From a virus, in IMG/VR virus record IMGVR_UViG_3300032316_000329, positions 101,115 through 165,114 of that record: a DNA stretch of 64,000 bases; one strand, given 5' to 3'. Both the position numbers and the translations under genes were made by a program. Positions 17,907 to 46,903 of the stretch are shown piece by piece. Position 1 is the stretch's first letter. Each line of letters begins with the position of its first letter. The notes beneath the pieces were generated by a model, which was given only the letters and a program-made list of their open reading frames with translations, did no database searches and was not told the DNA's origin.

Positions 17907-18019
17907 GTCTCGCTACGCTCGACGGGTTGCTTTTGGTTAATATTGGTGGTGGTTTTCTTTCCAAGATTATACACACAAAACTGGAACCTTGTCAAGCCCC
18001 GGAATGAAAAAATCCGCCA

Positions 18020-18048
18020 TTGACAATAACTTTTTTTTATTATATAAT
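18020..18048 (+). promoter_or_regulatory. Early-type promoter for gp55
   Basis: TTGACA (18020-18025), 17-base spacer, TATAAT (18043-18048): a consensus host sigma-70 promoter with a T-rich spacer, 28 bases before the gp55 ATG. Confidence 0.85.
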
Positions 18049-18075
18049 GTATCCAATAACTATAAGAGGATTGTT

Positions 18076-18624
18076 ATGGCAAAGAAACCCAACCACTATG
18101 TAGATAACCAAAAGTTTTTAGCAGAGATTATTGAGTATAAGGACAAATGTAAAAAGGCCGCAGACAACGGCCTAGAAAAACCTCGGGTCTCAGAGTATAT
18201 CGGATCTTGTATTCTATTGATTGCTGAAAGACTTAGTACCAAACCTAGGTTTATGAACTACTCATTCCGTGATGAGTTGGTTTCCGATGCCTTAGAGAAT
18301 TGCTTTCTATACTTTGATAATTTCAATCCAGAGATTAGTCAGAATCCTTTTGCCTACTTTACACAAATCATCTACTATGCCTTCCATAGACGAATCTCAA
18401 AAGAAGAAAAAAATCGTTATATTATTTACAAAAAATTTCAAGAATCCGTCCTACATACCTCAGATGCATCCTTGATGATTGATGCTGATGATAATCACTT
18501 GATTTCCTCCGCAATGTATGATAACCTAAATGACTTCATAGGAAAGTTTGAAAAGCGAGAAGCGGAAAAGAAAGAGAAACGCAAGCAGGTCAAACAAGGA
18601 TTAGAAAATTTTACCGAGGAGTGA
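18076..18624 (+). CDS. 55: Late transcription sigma factor gp55
   Basis: 182 residues from ATG 18076 (T4 gp55: 185). An upstream in-frame ATG at 17989 lies before the promoter and is not used. The central part (SFRDELVSDALENCFLYFDNF ... NPFAYFTQIIYYAFHRRISKE) is the sigma region 2-like helix pair, with FAYFTQIIYYAFHRR the core/promoter-melting helix. It would direct host RNA polymerase to the CTAAATA sites, coupled to the sliding clamp gp45. C-terminus is Lys/Glu-rich. Confidence 0.9.
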   Translation: MAKKPNHYVDNQKFLAEIIEYKDKCKKAADNGLEKPRVSEYIGSCILLIAERLSTKPRFMNYSFRDELVSDALENCFLYFDNFNPEISQNPFAYFTQIIYYAFHRRISKEEKNRYIIYKKFQESVLHTSDASLMIDADDNHLISSAMYDNLNDFIGKFEKREAEKKEKRKQVKQGLENFTEE

Positions 18625-39345: not shown

Positions 39346-39916
39346 TGAAGATTTTAAGACTATTGAGGAACTAGGTGACGCATATCCACAGGAGTGGATT
39401 TCTAACAAAGGATTGGTTCCGTATATCAAGAGACTAGGCGAGAAACTAAAAGGTATTGAGATTGGTACCTGCCGTGCCGAAAGTACCGCATACTTTCTTG
39501 AAAAGTGTCCGAATATTGACCTTCTAACAACGATTGATCCTTATAAAGGTTATCAGGATTGGAATGGTGAGATTACACAGGAGACGGTTGATCGTTTCAT
39601 GGAAGTCGCCAAAAAGAACTTAAAGCAATATGGTAAGCGTGTTAAGATGCTCCGAGAGGAATCTACCGGTGTTGCTGATACATTCAAGGACAAATCCATA
39701 GATTTCATCTTTGTTGATGGCGATCATTCTTATGATGCTACCTTGGCAGATTGTGAAGCATATTATTCCAAACTGAAAAGCGGCGGCCTATTTTGTGGCC
39801 ACGATTATCAAACTATTGAAAGTGTTAAACGATCTGTTGATGATTTTCGCGCAAAGCACAAGATTACCTCACCAGTCAATCTAACAACAAACTCGGCATT
39901 TTTTTGGTATAAGTAA
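39332..39916 (+). CDS. SAM-dependent methyltransferase
   Basis: 194 residues from ATG 39332. Class I fold: GIEIGTCRAESTAYF (motif I, ~residues 41-55) and IDFIFVDGDHSYDATL (motif IV region). Resembles Methyltransf_24 proteins of glycan clusters, which methylate sugars. Stop overlaps the next start (TAATG). Confidence 0.75.
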   Translation: MALTDEDFKTIEELGDAYPQEWISNKGLVPYIKRLGEKLKGIEIGTCRAESTAYFLEKCPNIDLLTTIDPYKGYQDWNGEITQETVDRFMEVAKKNLKQYGKRVKMLREESTGVADTFKDKSIDFIFVDGDHSYDATLADCEAYYSKLKSGGLFCGHDYQTIESVKRSVDDFRAKHKITSPVNLTTNSAFFWYK

Positions 39917-40797
39917 TGAGAGAGATTAAACTAGGATTTGCTGATACTTTTTCTACTGCGGTAAACTTCTTTACCGAGGCATTAAGTAAGCAATTCCATA
40001 TTATTCGTGATGATGCACAACCAGAATATCTAATCTACGGTGAAGGAGTCTATGGACAAAATCACCGCAGGTTCGGTCCTGAGGTCACCAAAATCTTCTA
40101 TACAGGAGAGAATGTTCGCCCACCTTGGGGTGAGTGTCAGTATGCTATGACATTTGACCATGAGAACAGTGCCAGACATTATCGTTTACCTTTATATGTT
40201 ATCGATATGTGGGGTGCGGTGACCGAAGGATGGACCAAAGACTACTATCAACTGGTTGGTCTAAAACACGACTATGAACGAGAATACGATGAAAGAGACT
40301 TTTGTTCTTTTGTTGTATCTAATCCAGGCCAGGATATGAGAAATAAGGCCTTTCGTTTCATCAATGAATATAAAACGGTTGATAGTGGCGGGCCGCATCT
40401 AAACAACATTGGTCATGTTCTACCTAGGGACAAACTATTACATAAACTAAACTTCTTAGATTGTTACCGTTTCAATATCTGTTTTGAGAATGGTTCGCAT
40501 CCTGGTTATGTTACCGAGAAACTATTCAATGCACTACAGATAAAGACCATGCCAATCTATTGGGGTTCGGCCACGGTTGATAGAGACTTTAATCCTTTAG
40601 CCTTCATCAATGCTGCTGACCATGGTAATTTTAATAAACTGGTAGACTATGTTCAGCATTTGGATTCACCTTCTGGTAAACAAGAGTACCTAGATATTAT
40701 AGAGAGACCTGCTTTTAAGAATGATGTTCCTAATGAGTTTACAGATATGAATAATCTATGTGACTGGTGGGAAACATTTGTAATGGGTGTAAAATGA
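39916..40797 (+). CDS. Alpha-1,3-fucosyltransferase-like protein (GT10)
   Basis: 293 residues. The donor-binding block RFNICFENGSHPGYVTEKLF ... TMPIYWG (~residues 178-215) is the signature of the GT10 family, which transfers fucose from GDP-fucose. An N-terminal Rossmann-like half is less conserved. Suggests that a fucosylated or related deoxysugar glycan is made, although no GDP-fucose synthesis gene is in the window. Confidence 0.8.
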   Translation: MREIKLGFADTFSTAVNFFTEALSKQFHIIRDDAQPEYLIYGEGVYGQNHRRFGPEVTKIFYTGENVRPPWGECQYAMTFDHENSARHYRLPLYVIDMWGAVTEGWTKDYYQLVGLKHDYEREYDERDFCSFVVSNPGQDMRNKAFRFINEYKTVDSGGPHLNNIGHVLPRDKLLHKLNFLDCYRFNICFENGSHPGYVTEKLFNALQIKTMPIYWGSATVDRDFNPLAFINAADHGNFNKLVDYVQHLDSPSGKQEYLDIIERPAFKNDVPNEFTDMNNLCDWWETFVMGVK

Positions 40798-41738
40798 GAT
40801 TATTGTTTGTGGTTCATCGATATGCTCCATTCCCTGGTGGTAGTGAGTATTATGTCCAGAATATGGCCGAGGAAATGCTTAAACGTAAGCATCAGGTTAC
40901 CGTTCTAGCACATGAACATCAAGGTAACCTGAATGACATTACCGTTTCAAATGACTATAACACTCTTCTAAATCAGAAATGGGACCTTATCATTGTTCAT
41001 GGAGGTGATGTTATCTCTCAGAACGTTGTTCATATCAATGCGGAGAAACTACAATCACCTGTTCTTTATCTAATTGTCAAACCAAGTGATAGTCCAACCT
41101 GTGTTCAAGGATTAAATAATCATCGTTTTCTTGGTTACTCAACCAGCATGGACGTTGAACACCTCAAGAAATATGGTGTAATCAATAAAGGCCGGCGTAT
41201 TCGTCATGGTATTGTTCCTCACAAATATCAAAGAGCAAACTTAACAGGCAAAACAATCTTTGTATCCGCAGGTGGATTCTGGCAGCATAAGGCCATGACA
41301 CCTTTGGCAGAGGCATTTACAAAAGCAAATATTCCTAATGCTCAACTCCATCTATATGGATACGGTGAAGAACATTTGATGCCAAAAGAAACTAAGAATG
41401 TAAAGTGTTTCTTTGGTAAAGACAAGACAGAGGTTTTACTCTCTATTAGTGCCGCAGATGCTTATATTATGAACTCTTATGAGGAAGGTTTTGGTCTTGT
41501 CCTTTTAGAATCCATGATGAATAAGGTGCCTTGGTATGCAAGAGATATTGCCGGTGCTAAAGATATGTGCTACCATGGGACAGTTTATGAAACAGAGGAA
41601 GAGTTGATAAAACTCCTCCGTAAACATAAACGGAATGATAAGAAGATTGAAGATGCATATAACTATGTTATGTGTAATCATACCATCCAAGATACCTGTA
41701 ATGATATTGAAGATATACTATTGGAGACATTAAGATGA
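40794..41738 (+). CDS. Family 4 glycosyltransferase (GT-B)
   Basis: 314 residues from ATG 40794, overlapping the previous stop (ATGA). LLFVVHRYAPFPGGSEYYV at the N-terminus and the Ex7E motif EEGFGLVLLESM (~residues 236-247) mark a GT4 retaining enzyme. Confidence 0.85.
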   Translation: MRLLFVVHRYAPFPGGSEYYVQNMAEEMLKRKHQVTVLAHEHQGNLNDITVSNDYNTLLNQKWDLIIVHGGDVISQNVVHINAEKLQSPVLYLIVKPSDSPTCVQGLNNHRFLGYSTSMDVEHLKKYGVINKGRRIRHGIVPHKYQRANLTGKTIFVSAGGFWQHKAMTPLAEAFTKANIPNAQLHLYGYGEEHLMPKETKNVKCFFGKDKTEVLLSISAADAYIMNSYEEGFGLVLLESMMNKVPWYARDIAGAKDMCYHGTVYETEEELIKLLRKHKRNDKKIEDAYNYVMCNHTIQDTCNDIEDILLETLR

Positions 41739-42970
41739 AGGTAGCAGTTATTGGTGCCGGCGGCCATGTAGGATTTCCATTTTCATGTGTTATCGCCGAT
41801 GCTGGTCATACAGTGTTTGGTATTGACATAAACCAAGATGTTGTAGATAACCTAAACTTTGGCCATGTTCCTTATGTTGAAGAAGGTGCCGAGGATATTT
41901 TAGCAAGAAACATAGCACAAGAAAGATTATTCTTCACTACCAATTTTGACTTCATTAAACAGGCTGATGTTGTCGCTATTATGATTGGCACACCGGTTGA
42001 TGGAGAAGGCAATGCTAGATTGGATGACCTTTTTAATTTTGTTGACGATACTCTTATTCCTCGTATGAAAACAGGACAGTTAATTGTCCTTCGTTCTACA
42101 GTATCACCAGGAACATTAGAGGTTCTTCGCAACCATATTGCTGACCGTCATGGATGGGCGGAAGGTGCCGATTATCATCTTGTATTCTGTCCTGAGAGAG
42201 TGGTACAGGGCAGGTCTATTATTGAGACGGGTAAACTACCACAAATCATCGGTGCTTTTACCGACCAATCTTATAGAGTTGCTAAAGATTTCTTTAGCAC
42301 ATTTATTAACAATGAAATCTTCCAACTTACTCCTAAAGAGGCTGAGATTGGTAAACTAATGACGAATATGTATCGTTATGTTACCTTTGCCTTTGCTAAC
42401 GAGTTTTGGATGATTGGTGAAAAACATGGAGTGAATATTGACAAAGTTATCGATGCATGTAATTACGATTATCCTAGAATGGCAGTTCCTCATCCAGGAC
42501 CTAATGTTGGCGGTCCTTGCCTATTCAAAGACGGTAAGTTCCTGCTTACTGACATTCCCTTTGGCGATCTTATTAACACTAGCTTTCATATTAACGAAGG
42601 TATGCCTGATTATATCTTTAATCGTATTAAGAACATCAGTCCAAATATCAAGAATGTATTGATACTTGGTGCCACTTTTAAAAAGGATTGTGATGATACC
42701 AGAAACAGTCTATCTTTTAAAATGCGTAAGGTATGTAAGAAACATGGTGTGAAATCTTGGATGTGGGATCCGTTTGTAGTAGTGGATCAAAACTTACCTT
42801 CGGCAAAAGATTATGATGCTGTTATTGTAATGACGCCTCACTCAGATACAGAAAAAATGTGGCCAATATGGGACTTTAGAAAAGATTGTACCATTGTTGA
42901 TTTATGGAAAATCTATCCACGAAGCAAGATAAGTAATACGGGCATTTATAGAAATGGAGATATTTTATGA
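41735..42970 (+). CDS. Nucleotide-sugar dehydrogenase (UDP-ManNAc/UDP-glucose dehydrogenase family)
   Basis: 411 residues. NAD-binding GAGGHVGFP (residues 7-15), catalytic Cys in GGPCLFKDGKF (~256-266), and a third domain with LGATFKKDCDDTRNS. Oxidises a UDP-sugar to a uronic acid. Similar to WecC-type enzymes; the exact substrate cannot be read from sequence. Follows GT4 with an ATGA overlap. Confidence 0.85.
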   Translation: MKVAVIGAGGHVGFPFSCVIADAGHTVFGIDINQDVVDNLNFGHVPYVEEGAEDILARNIAQERLFFTTNFDFIKQADVVAIMIGTPVDGEGNARLDDLFNFVDDTLIPRMKTGQLIVLRSTVSPGTLEVLRNHIADRHGWAEGADYHLVFCPERVVQGRSIIETGKLPQIIGAFTDQSYRVAKDFFSTFINNEIFQLTPKEAEIGKLMTNMYRYVTFAFANEFWMIGEKHGVNIDKVIDACNYDYPRMAVPHPGPNVGGPCLFKDGKFLLTDIPFGDLINTSFHINEGMPDYIFNRIKNISPNIKNVLILGATFKKDCDDTRNSLSFKMRKVCKKHGVKSWMWDPFVVVDQNLPSAKDYDAVIVMTPHSDTEKMWPIWDFRKDCTIVDLWKIYPRSKISNTGIYRNGDIL

Positions 42971-43962
42971 TTAAAGTTTTGGTGACAGGTAGTGAAGGTT
43001 CTTTGATGCAGGCGGTCATTCCGCTTCTACTAAAAAAGAACTATGTTGTTGTCGGTGTTGATAATCTTGCTCGTTATGGTGAACGCCTTGGTATTGCTGG
43101 TAATGATTATCAGTTTATTAAATGTGACTTGACAGACCGTTTGAATGTTGATAACTTGGTTAAACAGACCAAACCAGATTATATCATTCAGGCAGCAGCA
43201 ACCATCTACGGTGTCGGTGGATTCAACAAGTATTGCGGAGAAATGTATAAGGACATTACTCTACATGATAATGTCCTCCGTGCGGCCGTTGCTTATGGTG
43301 TTAAAAAGGTAATCTATATTTCATCATCGATGGTTTATGAGAACTGTCCACAAGAGATTGGTAAGCCAGTAACAGAAGATATTGTTGATTATTACCCAGC
43401 ACCATATACAGATTACGGTTTGTCTAAGTTTGTTGGTGAACGTGTATCTAAGGCATATCTCAAGCAGCATGGCCTAAAGTATACCATTTGGCGTCCATTC
43501 AATATCATTACACCATACGAAAAGAGTGAAGATGAACAGGTTGGTATCTCTCATGTGTTTGCTGATTACATTAAGAATATTGCTATTGAGAAAAAGAAAC
43601 CACTCCCAATCATAGGAGACGGTCTACAGATTCGTTGCTTTACTTGGATTGATGAAGTAGCACAGGCAATTGCTGAATACTCTTTTTTAGATAAGACAGA
43701 CAATGAGACATACAATCTTGGTAATCCAGAACCAATCTCTATGCGTGTTTTAGCAGAAAAGATTGTTCATATTGGTTCTAATGAGTTCAAGACGTTTGAT
43801 GATTACTTTCTTCTTTATGAATCGGTTGGTGAATATGAGAATGATGTCCGTGTTCGTATTCCAGATGTTGATAAGGCCAAGAATGAACTTGGTTGGCAGG
43901 CAAAGATGCGAGCCGATGATTCCATTCGTTTATGTCTAAAGTATATTGTGGAGGGTAAATGA
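42967..43962 (+). CDS. NAD-dependent sugar epimerase/dehydratase
   Basis: 331 residues, extended SDR. NAD motif VTGSEGSLMQ (variant of TGxxGxxG), catalytic YGLSK (~residue 158; YxxxK) after SSSMVYENCP. Makes or edits a nucleotide sugar for the neighbouring transferases. The glycine motif deviates slightly at its last position. Confidence 0.85.
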   Translation: MIKVLVTGSEGSLMQAVIPLLLKKNYVVVGVDNLARYGERLGIAGNDYQFIKCDLTDRLNVDNLVKQTKPDYIIQAAATIYGVGGFNKYCGEMYKDITLHDNVLRAAVAYGVKKVIYISSSMVYENCPQEIGKPVTEDIVDYYPAPYTDYGLSKFVGERVSKAYLKQHGLKYTIWRPFNIITPYEKSEDEQVGISHVFADYIKNIAIEKKKPLPIIGDGLQIRCFTWIDEVAQAIAEYSFLDKTDNETYNLGNPEPISMRVLAEKIVHIGSNEFKTFDDYFLLYESVGEYENDVRVRIPDVDKAKNELGWQAKMRADDSIRLCLKYIVEGK

Positions 43963-44507
43963 TTTTAGATATAGGTTCTGGACCACATCCTAAAGCGGAT
44001 GCTACTGAAAGAATGGATATGCACCAGTGGGCAGGCGTGACACAGGTTCACGACCTGCGCCATTTCCCTTATCCATATGAAGATAGCTCCGCAGAAAAGA
44101 TTTACCTTGGTGATGTTATTGAACACCTTACCAAGTTTGATGCACCAAACGTATTGAAAGAAATCCATCGTATTCTAAAATCAGGTGGTCAATTTGAGAT
44201 TACCTGTCCAGATGCTTTATGGATTATGACACAAATTGTTGAAGGTACATGGAACGAAAATGCTAATGTTGATTGGTTAAGACAGAATGAGGACCCATGG
44301 GATAATGCTATGGACTATCTGTTTGGTGGTTGGCGTCATCCAGAAGAACACAGGATTCCTGGCATGGGACACATTAACGGATTTTGTTTCACTTCTTTAA
44401 GAAAAGAACTTGAGGCGGCAGGATTTAAAAATATTGAACGAGTAGCAGATGATAGAAATCCTGAACCAGCAAGATGGTCGGTGTTAAAACTGGTAGCAAC
44501 AAAATGA
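43959..44507 (+). CDS. SAM-dependent methyltransferase
   Basis: 182 residues. LDIGSGPHPK (motif I, residues 3-12), YLGDVIEHLTKFDAPNVLKE and RILKSGGQFEI are class I features as in Methyltransf_11. Last gene of the glycan cluster; ATGA overlap with the gene before. Confidence 0.8.
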   Translation: MILDIGSGPHPKADATERMDMHQWAGVTQVHDLRHFPYPYEDSSAEKIYLGDVIEHLTKFDAPNVLKEIHRILKSGGQFEITCPDALWIMTQIVEGTWNENANVDWLRQNEDPWDNAMDYLFGGWRHPEEHRIPGMGHINGFCFTSLRKELEAAGFKNIERVADDRNPEPARWSVLKLVATK

Positions 44508-45067: not shown

Positions 45068-45103
45068 TTGTCTAAAAATTGACGGCGATTGTCTAAAACT
45101 GAC
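45067..45103 (+). repeat. Tandem ATTGTCTAAAA-TGAC repeats upstream of pmoC
   Basis: ATTGTCTAAAAATTGAC (45067-45083) and ATTGTCTAAAACTGAC (45088-45103), 21 bases apart. TATTAT (45113-45118) follows, so TTGTCT could be a weak -35 of an early promoter; a regulator site is the alternative. The gap 45068-45215 has no credible gene. Confidence 0.5.
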
Positions 45104-45157
45104 TGTTTTCCTTATTATTTCTATGTCATAATGTTGTTATGTAGTCAATCAGGACTA

Positions 45158-45164
45158 CTAAATA
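45158..45164 (+). promoter_or_regulatory. Putative late promoter (CTAAATA) for pmoC
   Basis: CTAAATA 52 bases before the pmoC ATG. The expected +1 (~45171) coincides with the start of a leader hairpin. Confidence 0.65.
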
Positions 45165-45171
45165 TCTTATC

Positions 45172-45191
45172 GGGTCCTATTACCGGGACCC
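45172..45191 (+). other. Leader stem-loop of the pmoC transcript
   Basis: GGGTCC (45172-45177) pairs with GGACCC (45186-45191), 8-base loop. It would be the 5' end of the late pmoC mRNA; ATAGGAGTG further on is the ribosome site. Confidence 0.55.
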
Positions 45192-45215
45192 TAAGAAAAA
45201 CAATAGGAGTGATAA

Positions 45216-45986
45216 ATGAGCGTTGTAAATCGAGCGGCAACAGCCGTGGCTACCGGCGTTGACAGTAAGGTCGTTGACCTTCGAGGAATGTGGATAGGAC
45301 TCGCAACCTTAAACATATTCTATTTAATTGTCCGTATCTATGAACAGGTTTTCGGTTGGCGTGCCGGCCTTGACTCGTTCGCACCAGAGTTCCAGACATA
45401 TTGGATGTCTATTCTTTGGACGGAAATCCCACTAGAACTTGTTTCAGGTCTTGGTCTTGCGGGTTATCTTTGGAAGACCCGTGATAGAGACCTAGCAAAT
45501 GTAGCACCTCGGGAGGAGTTGCGTCGTTTGGTAACACTGGTTCAGTGGTTGGTTGTTTATGCTGTTGCTATTTACTGGGGTGCAAGTTTCTTCACTGAAC
45601 AGGATGGTACATGGCATATGACAGTCATTCGTGATACTGACTTCACTCCGTCACATATCATTGAGTTCTACATGAGTTATCCAATCTACTCAATTATTGC
45701 TGTTGGTGCGTTCTTCTATGCCCGCACCCGTATTCCTTACTTTGCTCAGGGATATAGTTTGGCATTCTTGATTGTTGCAATTGGTCCATTCATGATTATT
45801 CCAAATGTTGGACTTAATGAGTGGGGCCATACATTCTGGTTCATGGAAGAACTATTCGTTGCTCCGCTTCATTGGGGTTTCGTGTTCTTCGGTTGGATGG
45901 CATTAGGCGTCTTTGGTGTTGTTCTACAAATCCTTGGACGAGTTCATGCCCTTGTTGGTAAAGAAGGTTCTGCCCTTCTAACCTAA
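45216..45986 (+). CDS. pmoC: Particulate methane monooxygenase subunit C (PmoC/AmoC family)
   Basis: 256 residues, the usual length for bacterial PmoC, with about six hydrophobic helices. The known copper ligands of PmoC are all present: Asp130, His134 and His147 (DGTWH ... FTPSH; the Asp156/His160/His173 site of Methylococcus numbering) and Asn201, His205 and His219 (NEWGH ... APLHWGF; the Asn227/His231/His245 site). The run from FTPSHIIEFY to the end is very close to alphaproteobacterial methanotroph PmoC. The protein would sit in host intracytoplasmic membranes with host PmoA and PmoB; no pmoA or pmoB is in the window. Membrane insertion needs no signal peptide. Own late promoter before, small secreted peptide and terminator after. 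Confidence 0.95.
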   Translation: MSVVNRAATAVATGVDSKVVDLRGMWIGLATLNIFYLIVRIYEQVFGWRAGLDSFAPEFQTYWMSILWTEIPLELVSGLGLAGYLWKTRDRDLANVAPREELRRLVTLVQWLVVYAVAIYWGASFFTEQDGTWHMTVIRDTDFTPSHIIEFYMSYPIYSIIAVGAFFYARTRIPYFAQGYSLAFLIVAIGPFMIIPNVGLNEWGHTFWFMEELFVAPLHWGFVFFGWMALGVFGVVLQILGRVHALVGKEGSALLT

Positions 45987-46003
45987 AAATAGGAGAGAAA
46001 GAA

Positions 46004-46138
46004 ATGGGTAATAAAAAACTATATAGATTTTTGTTCTTGGTTCTTTCGTGTTTGATTCTACAGGTGTCCTTTAATCCTACATATGCTCATCATGATGGAT
46101 CAAGTGGTGTGGTATATGAAGGTGCTGGAGGAAGATAA
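46004..46138 (+). CDS. Small secreted His-leading peptide in the pmoC unit
   Basis: 44 residues, ATG after AGGAGAGAAAG, 17 bases after the pmoC stop and before the same terminator, so co-transcribed. Residues 1-28 are a signal peptide (LFLVLSCLILQ core, TYA cleavage site). The mature 16-mer would begin HHDGSSG and end GGR. A free N-terminal His is used for copper in PmoB, CopC and LPMOs, but no such function is shown here. Cleavage before Cys16 as a lipoprotein is a weaker alternative. Not recognised as a known family. Confidence 0.6.
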   Translation: MGNKKLYRFLFLVLSCLILQVSFNPTYAHHDGSSGVVYEGAGGR

Positions 46139-46146
46139 AAATTAAG

Positions 46147-46172
46147 GGGTGGGATTAGTTCCCACCCTTTTT
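46147..46172 (+). terminator. Intrinsic terminator of the pmoC unit
   Basis: GGGTGGGA (46147-46154) pairs with TCCCACCC (46160-46167), loop TTAGT, followed by five T's. Confidence 0.9.
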
Positions 46173-46182
46173 GTATGTAAAC

Positions 46183-46267
46183 ATCGGTTATGCTATTTTT
46201 GACATAATAACCGATTATGCAGGAAATAACATAAACAAATGTAAACAGGGTGCGACAATATGTCGCA
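46183..46267. repeat. Two inverted repeats between pmoC unit and homing endonuclease
   Basis: ATCGGTTAT (46183-46191) with ATAACCGAT (46207-46215), and TGCGACA (46251-46257) with TGTCGCA (46261-46267). The second lies just past the end of the minus-strand gene and could be its 3' end structure. They may also mark the insertion boundary of the endonuclease. Confidence 0.5.
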
Positions 46268-46855: not shown

Positions 46856-46862
46856 TATTTAG
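46856..46862 (-). promoter_or_regulatory. Putative late promoter (CTAAATA, minus strand) for the homing endonuclease
   Basis: TATTTAG on the + strand reads CTAAATA on the minus strand, 62 bases before the endonuclease ATG. Presence on the minus strand upstream of a minus-strand gene supports the late-promoter reading of this motif. Confidence 0.65.
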
Positions 46863-46874
46863 GCATTTTTGTAT

Positions 46875-46903
46875 TTGACAAATACTATTCCTTGTGCTAT
46901 AAT
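46875..46903 (+). promoter_or_regulatory. Early-type promoter
   Basis: TTGACA (46875-46880), 17-base spacer ending ATTCCTTGTGC, TATAAT (46898-46903), 35 bases before the Api92-like gene. The spacer end matches the promoter at 29010. Confidence 0.9.

What the first reader, a model, noticed from the sequence alone, without database searches (positions are those of the whole stretch)
45216..45986. Complete pmoC in a T4-like phage, all copper ligands kept
The 256-residue protein keeps both PmoC metal sites (Asp130/His134/His147 and Asn201/His205/His219). This is hard to explain unless selection maintains function. It suggests that the phage tops up methane oxidation in an alphaproteobacterial methanotroph during infection. 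Phage pmoC has been reported from freshwater metagenomes, so the gene type is known. What can be added here is its regulatory unit and neighbours.
Basis: partly seen in the sequence, partly recalled or inferred. Interest (0 to 1): 0.9.

Follow-up and report, generated by a model that had tools for sequence, protein, structure and literature searches.

The report
Late-promoter pmoC cassette in methanotroph phage
A T4-like phage of methane-eating bacteria carries an intact copy of one subunit of the methane-oxidising enzyme, placed under the phage's own late-infection promoter and kept nearly unchanged by selection; such phages were first reported in 2020, but the switch that drives the gene, and the self-splicing introns that explain 'broken' copies in some related phages, were not found described in the papers searched.

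Summary
ORF 45216-45986 is a 256-aa PmoC, and all six copper-site residues are present. It sits in a 165-kb T4-like record. pmoC-phages are known (Chen 2020), so the gene is a new member of a known kind.

What the tools add: (1) Selection: omega is 0.057 across 34 distinct viral alleles, and no intact copy in the 80 fetched viral loci lost a ligand. Viral alleles form one, at most a few, old lineages beside Methylocystis PmoC. (2) Regulation: pmoC has the phage's own late promoter (CTAAATA, 45158). Its predicted mRNA opens with a stem-loop, then a Shine-Dalgarno. Of 45 distinct viral pmoC upstreams, 38 carry a T4-type late box; of 73 host upstreams, none. Two leader families occur only at viral pmoC. 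(3) A pmoC-free relative (L303) has the empty site: pmoC, promoter, a small secreted-peptide ORF and a terminator form one ~1.17-kb insert. (4) In related gamma-type phages, pmoC that looks 'fragmented' is split by one to four group I introns at seven sites; splicing on paper restores full-length PmoC.

Likely mechanism: late synthesis of replacement PmoC for host pMMO. Assembly with host PmoA/PmoB and a gain in methane oxidation remain inferred.

The parts
45216..45986 (+). pmoC, 256 aa, all six copper ligands
45072..46237 (+). pmoC cassette as an insert of about 1.17 kb; absent from the same site of a pmoC-free relative (L303)
   Evidence: blastn: window 44777-45071 matches L303 2998-3292, window 46238-46272 matches L303 3288-3322, nothing between; no pmoC in that 93.8-kb record
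45158..45164 (+). CTAAATA, phage late promoter (Aeh1-type T4 late box); predicted +1 near 45170
   Evidence: most enriched heptamer upstream of ORFs in the 165-kb genome, 17 seen against 1.6 expected; same consensus as phage Aeh1, starting at -12 (PMC1524935)
45140..45159 (+). 7-bp dyad (TGTAGTC-N6-GACTACT) that overlaps the late box; covaries in relatives
   Evidence: 2 pairs with double-sided changes, 3 cells against 0.7 in shuffles; role unknown
45172..45191 (+). 5'-terminal stem-loop of the predicted late mRNA (starts at +3)
   Evidence: fold -12.9 kcal/mol, z -1.7; leader model R2 hits only seven viral pmoC
45205..45209 (+). Shine-Dalgarno AGGAG, within the nearly invariant AATAGGAGTGA
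45087..45095 (+). GATTGTCTA box, conserved upstream in leader-B phages; possible part of an earlier promoter
   Evidence: GATTGTCT invariant in seven leaders, last base varies in one; function not established
46004..46138 (+). small ORF, 44 aa: signal peptide (by eye), predicted mature HHDGSSGVVYEGAGGR
   Evidence: homologues next to pmoC in L003 and L013, nowhere else in viral contigs by pattern
46144..46170 (+). intrinsic terminator closing the pmoC unit
   Evidence: 11-bp stem with T-rich tail; a near-identical terminator follows pmoC directly in L002
46288..46794 (-). free-standing GIY-YIG-type homing endonuclease next to the cassette, with its own CTAAATA at 46862
   Evidence: PHROG homing endonuclease hits; late box; also absent from L303
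44780..45067 (+). upstream neighbour, 95-aa secreted-type protein; left border of the cassette site
17989..18624 (+). late sigma factor gp55, which would read the late box
   Evidence: phrog_234, 191 bits
32189..32842 (+). sliding clamp gp45, the late-transcription co-activator in T4
   Evidence: phrog_223, 214 bits
37104..37646 (+). HSP20; next to pmoC in leader-A phages, about 8 kb away here
   Evidence: phrog_432; synteny

Best explanation
pmoC is carried as a self-contained gene cassette (moron-like): late promoter, 5' stem-loop leader, Shine-Dalgarno, pmoC, a small secreted-peptide ORF and a terminator. During late infection gp55-RNA polymerase transcribes it from about 45170; the hairpin at the very 5' end protects the message and PmoC is made at a high level. 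The phage PmoC, with both copper sites intact, then joins host PmoA and PmoB in the intracytoplasmic membrane and so keeps methane oxidation running while host genes are shut off. Shown: the gene, ligands, purifying selection, late box, leader conservation, terminator, empty site, and no PmoA match in the phage record. Inferred: transcript timing for this phage, hairpin function, assembly into host pMMO, and benefit to the phage.
For: Pfam and PDB matches. Ligands kept in all viral copies. omega 0.057 for alpha-type viral, 0.051 for gamma-type viral and 0.072 for host copies. Against the nearest hosts pS is 0.82-0.83 (saturated) while amino-acid identity is 86-88%; GC3 is 0.40 against 0.75-0.79 in hosts: long residence in phage DNA with the protein held fixed. 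CTAAATA enriched 17 against 1.6 and present at pmoC; gp55 and gp45 encoded. A late box is present in 38 of 45 distinct viral pmoC upstreams and 122 of 584 other viral ORFs; of 73 host upstreams none has even the core TAAATA. Leader models hit only viral pmoC. Empty site. In Lake Rotsee, pmoC of other phages was co-expressed with late structural genes (PMC7674155).
Against: No transcript, protein or enzyme data for this phage. Five of 45 viral pmoC upstreams, including the close relatives L001 and L002, lack even the core TAAATA, so late control is not universal. The small alpha-type phages in Lake Rotsee were transcriptionally silent when sampled. PmoC without PmoA/PmoB has no demonstrated activity. 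Conserved residues show constraint, not which function is constrained. Relatedness of the sequences inflates the promoter statistics. The stem-loop of leader B is only mildly more stable than shuffles (mean z -1.4).
Confidence: 0.72

Rival explanations
1. Phage PmoC inserts into the membrane or pMMO but does not raise methane oxidation: it retunes or damps the enzyme (altered copper use, electron demand or membrane supply), or serves as an alternative stress isoform like stand-alone host pmoC copies.
For: Chen 2020 notes that the viral N and C termini differ from host ones and suggests stand-alone-type roles; Methylocystis genomes carry PmoC copies that lost copper ligands (THNNHH in L148, L149, L150, L153, L155), so isoforms can differ in function.
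Against: Viral copies keep every ligand and sit beside operonic, pmoA-linked PmoC in the tree.
Confidence: 0.15
2. The gene is a passenger, picked up by homologous recombination or carried along by the neighbouring homing endonuclease, with no role in infection.
For: GIY-YIG endonuclease next door, absent together with pmoC from L303; pmoC presence varies between relatives (and L303).
Against: omega 0.057, synonymous divergence among viral copies of 0.5-1.6, base composition adapted towards the phage, and phage promoters or leaders at most copies do not fit a passive passenger.
Confidence: 0.06
3. The window is a chimaeric assembly of host pmoC and phage DNA.
For: Chen 2020 reports that pmoC breaks assemblies.
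Against: Independent contigs share the junctions; GC3 and leader are viral, not host; a second, identical record L059.
Confidence: 0.01

Closest known systems
pmoC-phages of freshwater methanotrophs (Chen et al. 2020, PMC7674155)
   Same: T4-like myovirus of about 160-175 kb, pmoC without a detected pmoA, Methylocystis-type PmoC, copper ligands kept, late co-expression shown for some members
   Different: Here the late promoter, leader, terminator, cassette boundaries and selection are worked out; that paper's main text does not contain the words promoter or intron
Operonic PmoC of Methylocystis (3rfr, 4phz; L081, L085, L086)
   Same: About 86-92% identity depending on the stretch compared, same ligands, same length
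   Different: GC3 0.40 against 0.75-0.79; no pmoA after it; own phage promoter and leader
T4/Aeh1 late promoters (PMC1524935)
   Same: CTAAATA, starting at -12, same as Aeh1; gp55 and gp45 present
   Different: Drives a host-derived metabolic gene; an extra covarying dyad overlaps the box
Cyanophage psbA with group I intron and free-standing endonuclease (PMC5931967)
   Same: A host-derived energy gene in T4-like phages; in related pmoC-phages it is also split by group I introns; a free-standing endonuclease lies nearby
   Different: pmoC has up to four introns and seven sites; the window's own pmoC has none; the endonuclease target is unknown
amoC of thaumarchaeal viruses (cited in PMC7674155)
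   Same: Only the C subunit of the monooxygenase is carried
   Different: Archaeal host, other virus group; not compared here by sequence

Membership tests
PmoC/AmoC protein family (PF04896) | Match over the full model above cut-off | tested here: met
   362.5 bits, model 7-244 of 245
PmoC/AmoC protein family (PF04896) | CuC and CuD ligands (Asp, His, His; Asn, His, His) | tested here: met
PmoC/AmoC protein family (PF04896) | Forms pMMO with PmoA and PmoB | not testable with these tools
   needs an experiment
pmoC-phage (Chen 2020) | T4-like myovirus core genes around pmoC | tested here: met
pmoC-phage (Chen 2020) | No pmoA or pmoB in the genome | tested here: inconclusive
   No match to host PmoA in the 165-kb record, while the control L085 rings; Pfam searches for both gave nothing but had no positive control; record completeness unknown
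pmoC-phage (Chen 2020) | PmoC groups with methanotroph PmoC | tested here: met
   with Methylocystis PmoC; co-occurrence with a host in one sample not tested
T4-type late promoter | Genome-wide late box upstream of late genes, present at pmoC | tested here: met
   17 against 1.6 expected; found at scaffold, tail tube and other genes and at pmoC
T4-type late promoter | Start site mapped 12 nt after the box start | not testable with these tools
   needs 5'-RACE
Moron (autonomous inserted gene unit) | Own promoter and terminator | tested here: met
   by sequence motifs
Moron (autonomous inserted gene unit) | Absent from the same site of a relative | tested here: met
   L303
Group I intron (related loci, not the window) | Conserved core fits RF00028 above its cut-off | tested here: met
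   L071/L182, L183 (two), L185 (four), L214, L215, L247, L248; the inserts of L201, L250 and L254 are below the cut-off
Group I intron (related loci, not the window) | Exon ends in U, intron ends in G, splicing restores the frame | tested here: met
   all but the first intron of L185, which ends in A; spliced proteins 250-259 aa
Group I intron (related loci, not the window) | Splicing in cells | not testable with these tools
   needs RT-PCR

The most novel reading that the evidence does not exclude
Phage pmoC is a late-expressed, moving cassette with its own two families of 5'-terminal stem-loop leaders, and its coding sequence is a hot spot for group I introns (seven sites, six of them within codons 204-227 around the second copper site, up to four introns in one gene). 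The published 'fragmented' pmoC genes would then be intact split genes, whose splicing could control PmoC supply during infection, as reported for cyanophage psbA.
Probability: 0.6. Interest if true: 0.78.

Novelty: new member of a known kind. Interest (0 to 1): 0.6.

Why it matters
Whether phages change methane oxidation is an open question with weight for lake methane budgets. The gene has been known since 2020, but its control was not described in the papers searched. A defined late promoter and leader give a direct test (5'-RACE, and spliced or unspliced RT-PCR, in methanotroph-rich water or in a phage-host pair). A defined empty site gives a natural control phage. The introns change the reading of 'fragmented' pmoC genes from decay to split but whole genes, which raises the share of pmoC-phages that can make PmoC.

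Tried and rejected
1) Early transcript sequesters the pmoC Shine-Dalgarno while the late transcript frees it, as for T4 I-TevI (PMC2988022): RNAalifold paired UGUGUCAU with the start region, but pairing probabilities of SD to AUG did not rise consistently in long transcripts and were no better than shuffles. Rejected. 2) The leader is inherited from the host: neither model hits 24 host loci. Rejected. 3) The leader is a general element of this phage: model R2 finds nothing else in the 165-kb genome. Rejected. 4) Rfam families at the leader: none. 5) Covariation support for leader A: helix 1 hardly varies, so it is uninformative; its support is stability (mean z -3.4). 6) ATTGTCTA as a box elsewhere in the window: as frequent as chance. 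7) A conserved sigma-70 promoter for leader B: a weak match in the window only, not seen in L004 by eye. 8) The small ORF as a general partner of viral pmoC: only the window, L003 and L013; the other pattern matches are unrelated frames. 9) Single origin of viral alpha-type pmoC: one clade in the quick tree (SH-aLRT 93), but 68% of bootstraps in the careful tree, so one or two origins. 10) Annotated phages: no pmoC found in 50,697 records.

Full report
WHAT IS THERE. The window is bases 101115-165114 of a 165,114-base virus record. ORF 45216-45986 encodes a 256-residue PmoC that fills the AmoC model (362 bits) and matches Methylocystis-type PmoC of solved pMMO (3rfr, 4phz). The six metal ligands are D130, H134, H147, N201, H205 and H219. 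Around it lie T4-like core genes: terminase, portal, head, sheath, scaffold, tail tube, gp46/gp47-like nuclease, family-B polymerase, UvsX, helicase, gp45 clamp and gp55 late sigma.

IS IT UNDER SELECTION. I collected 80 viral and 80 genomic relatives. Every viral copy that reaches the positions keeps all six ligands; five Methylocystis-group host copies do not (THNNHH). One-ratio codon models give omega 0.057 for 34 distinct alpha-type viral genes, 0.051 for 17 gamma-type viral genes and 0.072 for 24 host genes. Between the window and the nearest hosts, synonymous sites are saturated (pS 0.82-0.83) while amino-acid identity is 86-88%; GC3 is 0.40 in the window gene, 0.25-0.39 in other genes of this phage and 0.75-0.79 in hosts. 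Identity over the aligned core is 92% to L085. The gene has therefore been in phages for a long time and the protein has been held fixed.

WHERE IT COMES FROM. In a tree of 128 proteins the alpha-type viral copies group together next to Methylocystis PmoC L084, L085 and L086; two further viral groups lie with gammaproteobacterial methanotrophs. L081, L085 and L086 are followed by pmoA, so the source type is operonic. A careful tree of the alpha part puts all viral copies on one side in 68% of bootstraps: one origin is likely, two cannot be excluded. No hydrocarbon monooxygenase affinity appears.

HOW IT IS CONTROLLED. In the whole 165-kb genome the heptamer most enriched upstream of ORFs is CTAAATA (17 seen, 1.6 expected). 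It lies 26-64 bases before the scaffold, tail tube and other genes, and before pmoC at 45158. The same word, starting at -12, is the late promoter of the T4-like phage Aeh1 (PMC1524935). The predicted start is 45170. The 46-nt leader opens with a 7-bp stem-loop at +3, then AATAGGAGTGATAA and ATG. Seven distinct sequences, the window's included, share this 'leader B'. A second group, mostly phages in which pmoC lies next to HSP20, has 'leader A': TTGAC, then TATAAATA at a sigma-70-like distance (17 bases between hexamers in those checked by eye), then a long hairpin that again begins at +3 in all 15 distinct sequences (mean z -3.4), and a small hairpin over the Shine-Dalgarno. Leader A thus looks like an overlapping sigma-70 and late promoter, an inference from sequence. 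Covariance models of both leaders hit only viral pmoC (21 and 7 loci; two further R2 hits, at L002 upstream of pmoC and at L003 just after it, have E 0.5-0.8) in 869 kb that include this whole genome, and nothing in 24 host loci. Over 45 distinct viral pmoC upstreams 38 have a late box, against 122 of 584 other viral ORFs; of 73 host upstreams none has even the core TAAATA (sequences are related, so the p-value of 6e-18 is too small). A covarying 7-bp dyad overlaps the late box of leader B; its role is unexplained. An attractive switch, in which long early transcripts hide the start site, was tested and not supported.

A CASSETTE. L303, in a 93.8-kb record without pmoC, has the same left neighbour (84% identical protein) and the same right flank, but joins them directly: window 45072-46237 is the insert. 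It holds promoter, leader, pmoC, a 44-aa secreted-type ORF (46004-46138) and a terminator (46144-46170). Close relative L002 has a near-identical terminator straight after pmoC without the small ORF. L003 and L013 have the small ORF in the same region. pmoC occupies other sites in other phages (next to HSP20 in the leader-A group), and in L034/L035 the homologue of the left neighbour lies 3.3 kb from pmoC. A GIY-YIG-type endonuclease gene with its own late box lies just downstream and is also absent from L303; whether it moved the cassette is an open idea.

INTRONS IN RELATED PHAGES. Scans with gamma-type queries gave ten records in which pmoC is broken by inserts of about 250 bases. Rfam finds group I introns in seven of these records, two in L183 and four in L185 (L182 and L071 are one record). 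The inserts of L201, L250 and L254 fall below the cut-off but sit and end the same way. Cutting after a U and after an intron-final G restores full-length PmoC of 250-259 residues with every ligand (the first intron of L185 ends in A). Sites in window numbering: 47/48, 204/205, 207, 209, 216/217, 222 and 226/227. Unspliced, the frames stop soon after the first junction. No paper in the library holds both 'group I intron' and 'pmoC'. Chen 2020 calls four phage pmoC genes fragmented and notes a transcribed non-coding stretch between the pieces of one. My reading is that these are probably introns, but I did not have those named genomes.

MECHANISM AND LIMITS. Best reading: late-made PmoC replaces host PmoC in pMMO so that methane oxidation, the cell's energy source, goes on during virion assembly. 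The genetic parts are shown; timing for this phage, assembly and benefit are inferred. Late co-expression of pmoC with structural genes was seen in other pmoC-phages, and the small alpha-type ones were silent in that lake.

NOVELTY. pmoC in T4-like freshwater phages is known (PMC7674155; also PMC9875498, PMC10904782). New here, as far as the searched open papers show: the late-promoter and leader architecture, the exact cassette and empty site, the clade-wide selection estimate, and group I introns in related copies.

Noticed in passing
L071/L182, L183, L185, L201, L214, L215, L247, L248, L250, L254: Gamma-type phage pmoC genes split by one to four group I introns at seven sites, mostly within codons 204-227; splicing on paper restores PmoC.
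   Followed up: yes
L148, L149, L150, L153, L155: A group of Methylocystis-type PmoC copies (57-59% identical) in which the first copper site reads T-H-N instead of D-H-H; all five cluster on one long branch.
   Followed up: partly
L055:11770-12189: A permuted, alphaproteobacterial-type tmRNA gene in an IMG/VR contig that carries a gamma-type pmoC.
   Followed up: no
window 45140-45159: A 7-bp dyad overlapping the late box changes on both arms together in relatives; neither an operator nor an RNA role was shown.
   Followed up: partly
window 46004-46138: A 44-aa ORF with a signal peptide whose predicted mature end starts with two histidines, a possible metal ligand; homologues only beside pmoC in L003 and L013.
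   Followed up: partly
leader-A loci, e.g. L034:6699-6789: The Shine-Dalgarno of pmoC lies in a small hairpin (UUCUC-AAUG-GAGAA), and a similar match stands before the HSP20 gene that follows.
   Followed up: no
window 46875-46903: A perfect sigma-70 promoter (TTGACA, 17 bases, TATAAT, TG before the second hexamer) just before the ORF at about 46911.
   Followed up: no
window 39916-44507: A run of sugar-type genes (glycosyltransferase-like, UDP-glucose dehydrogenase-like, epimerase, methyltransferase) upstream of the pmoC site, conserved in relatives.
   Followed up: partly
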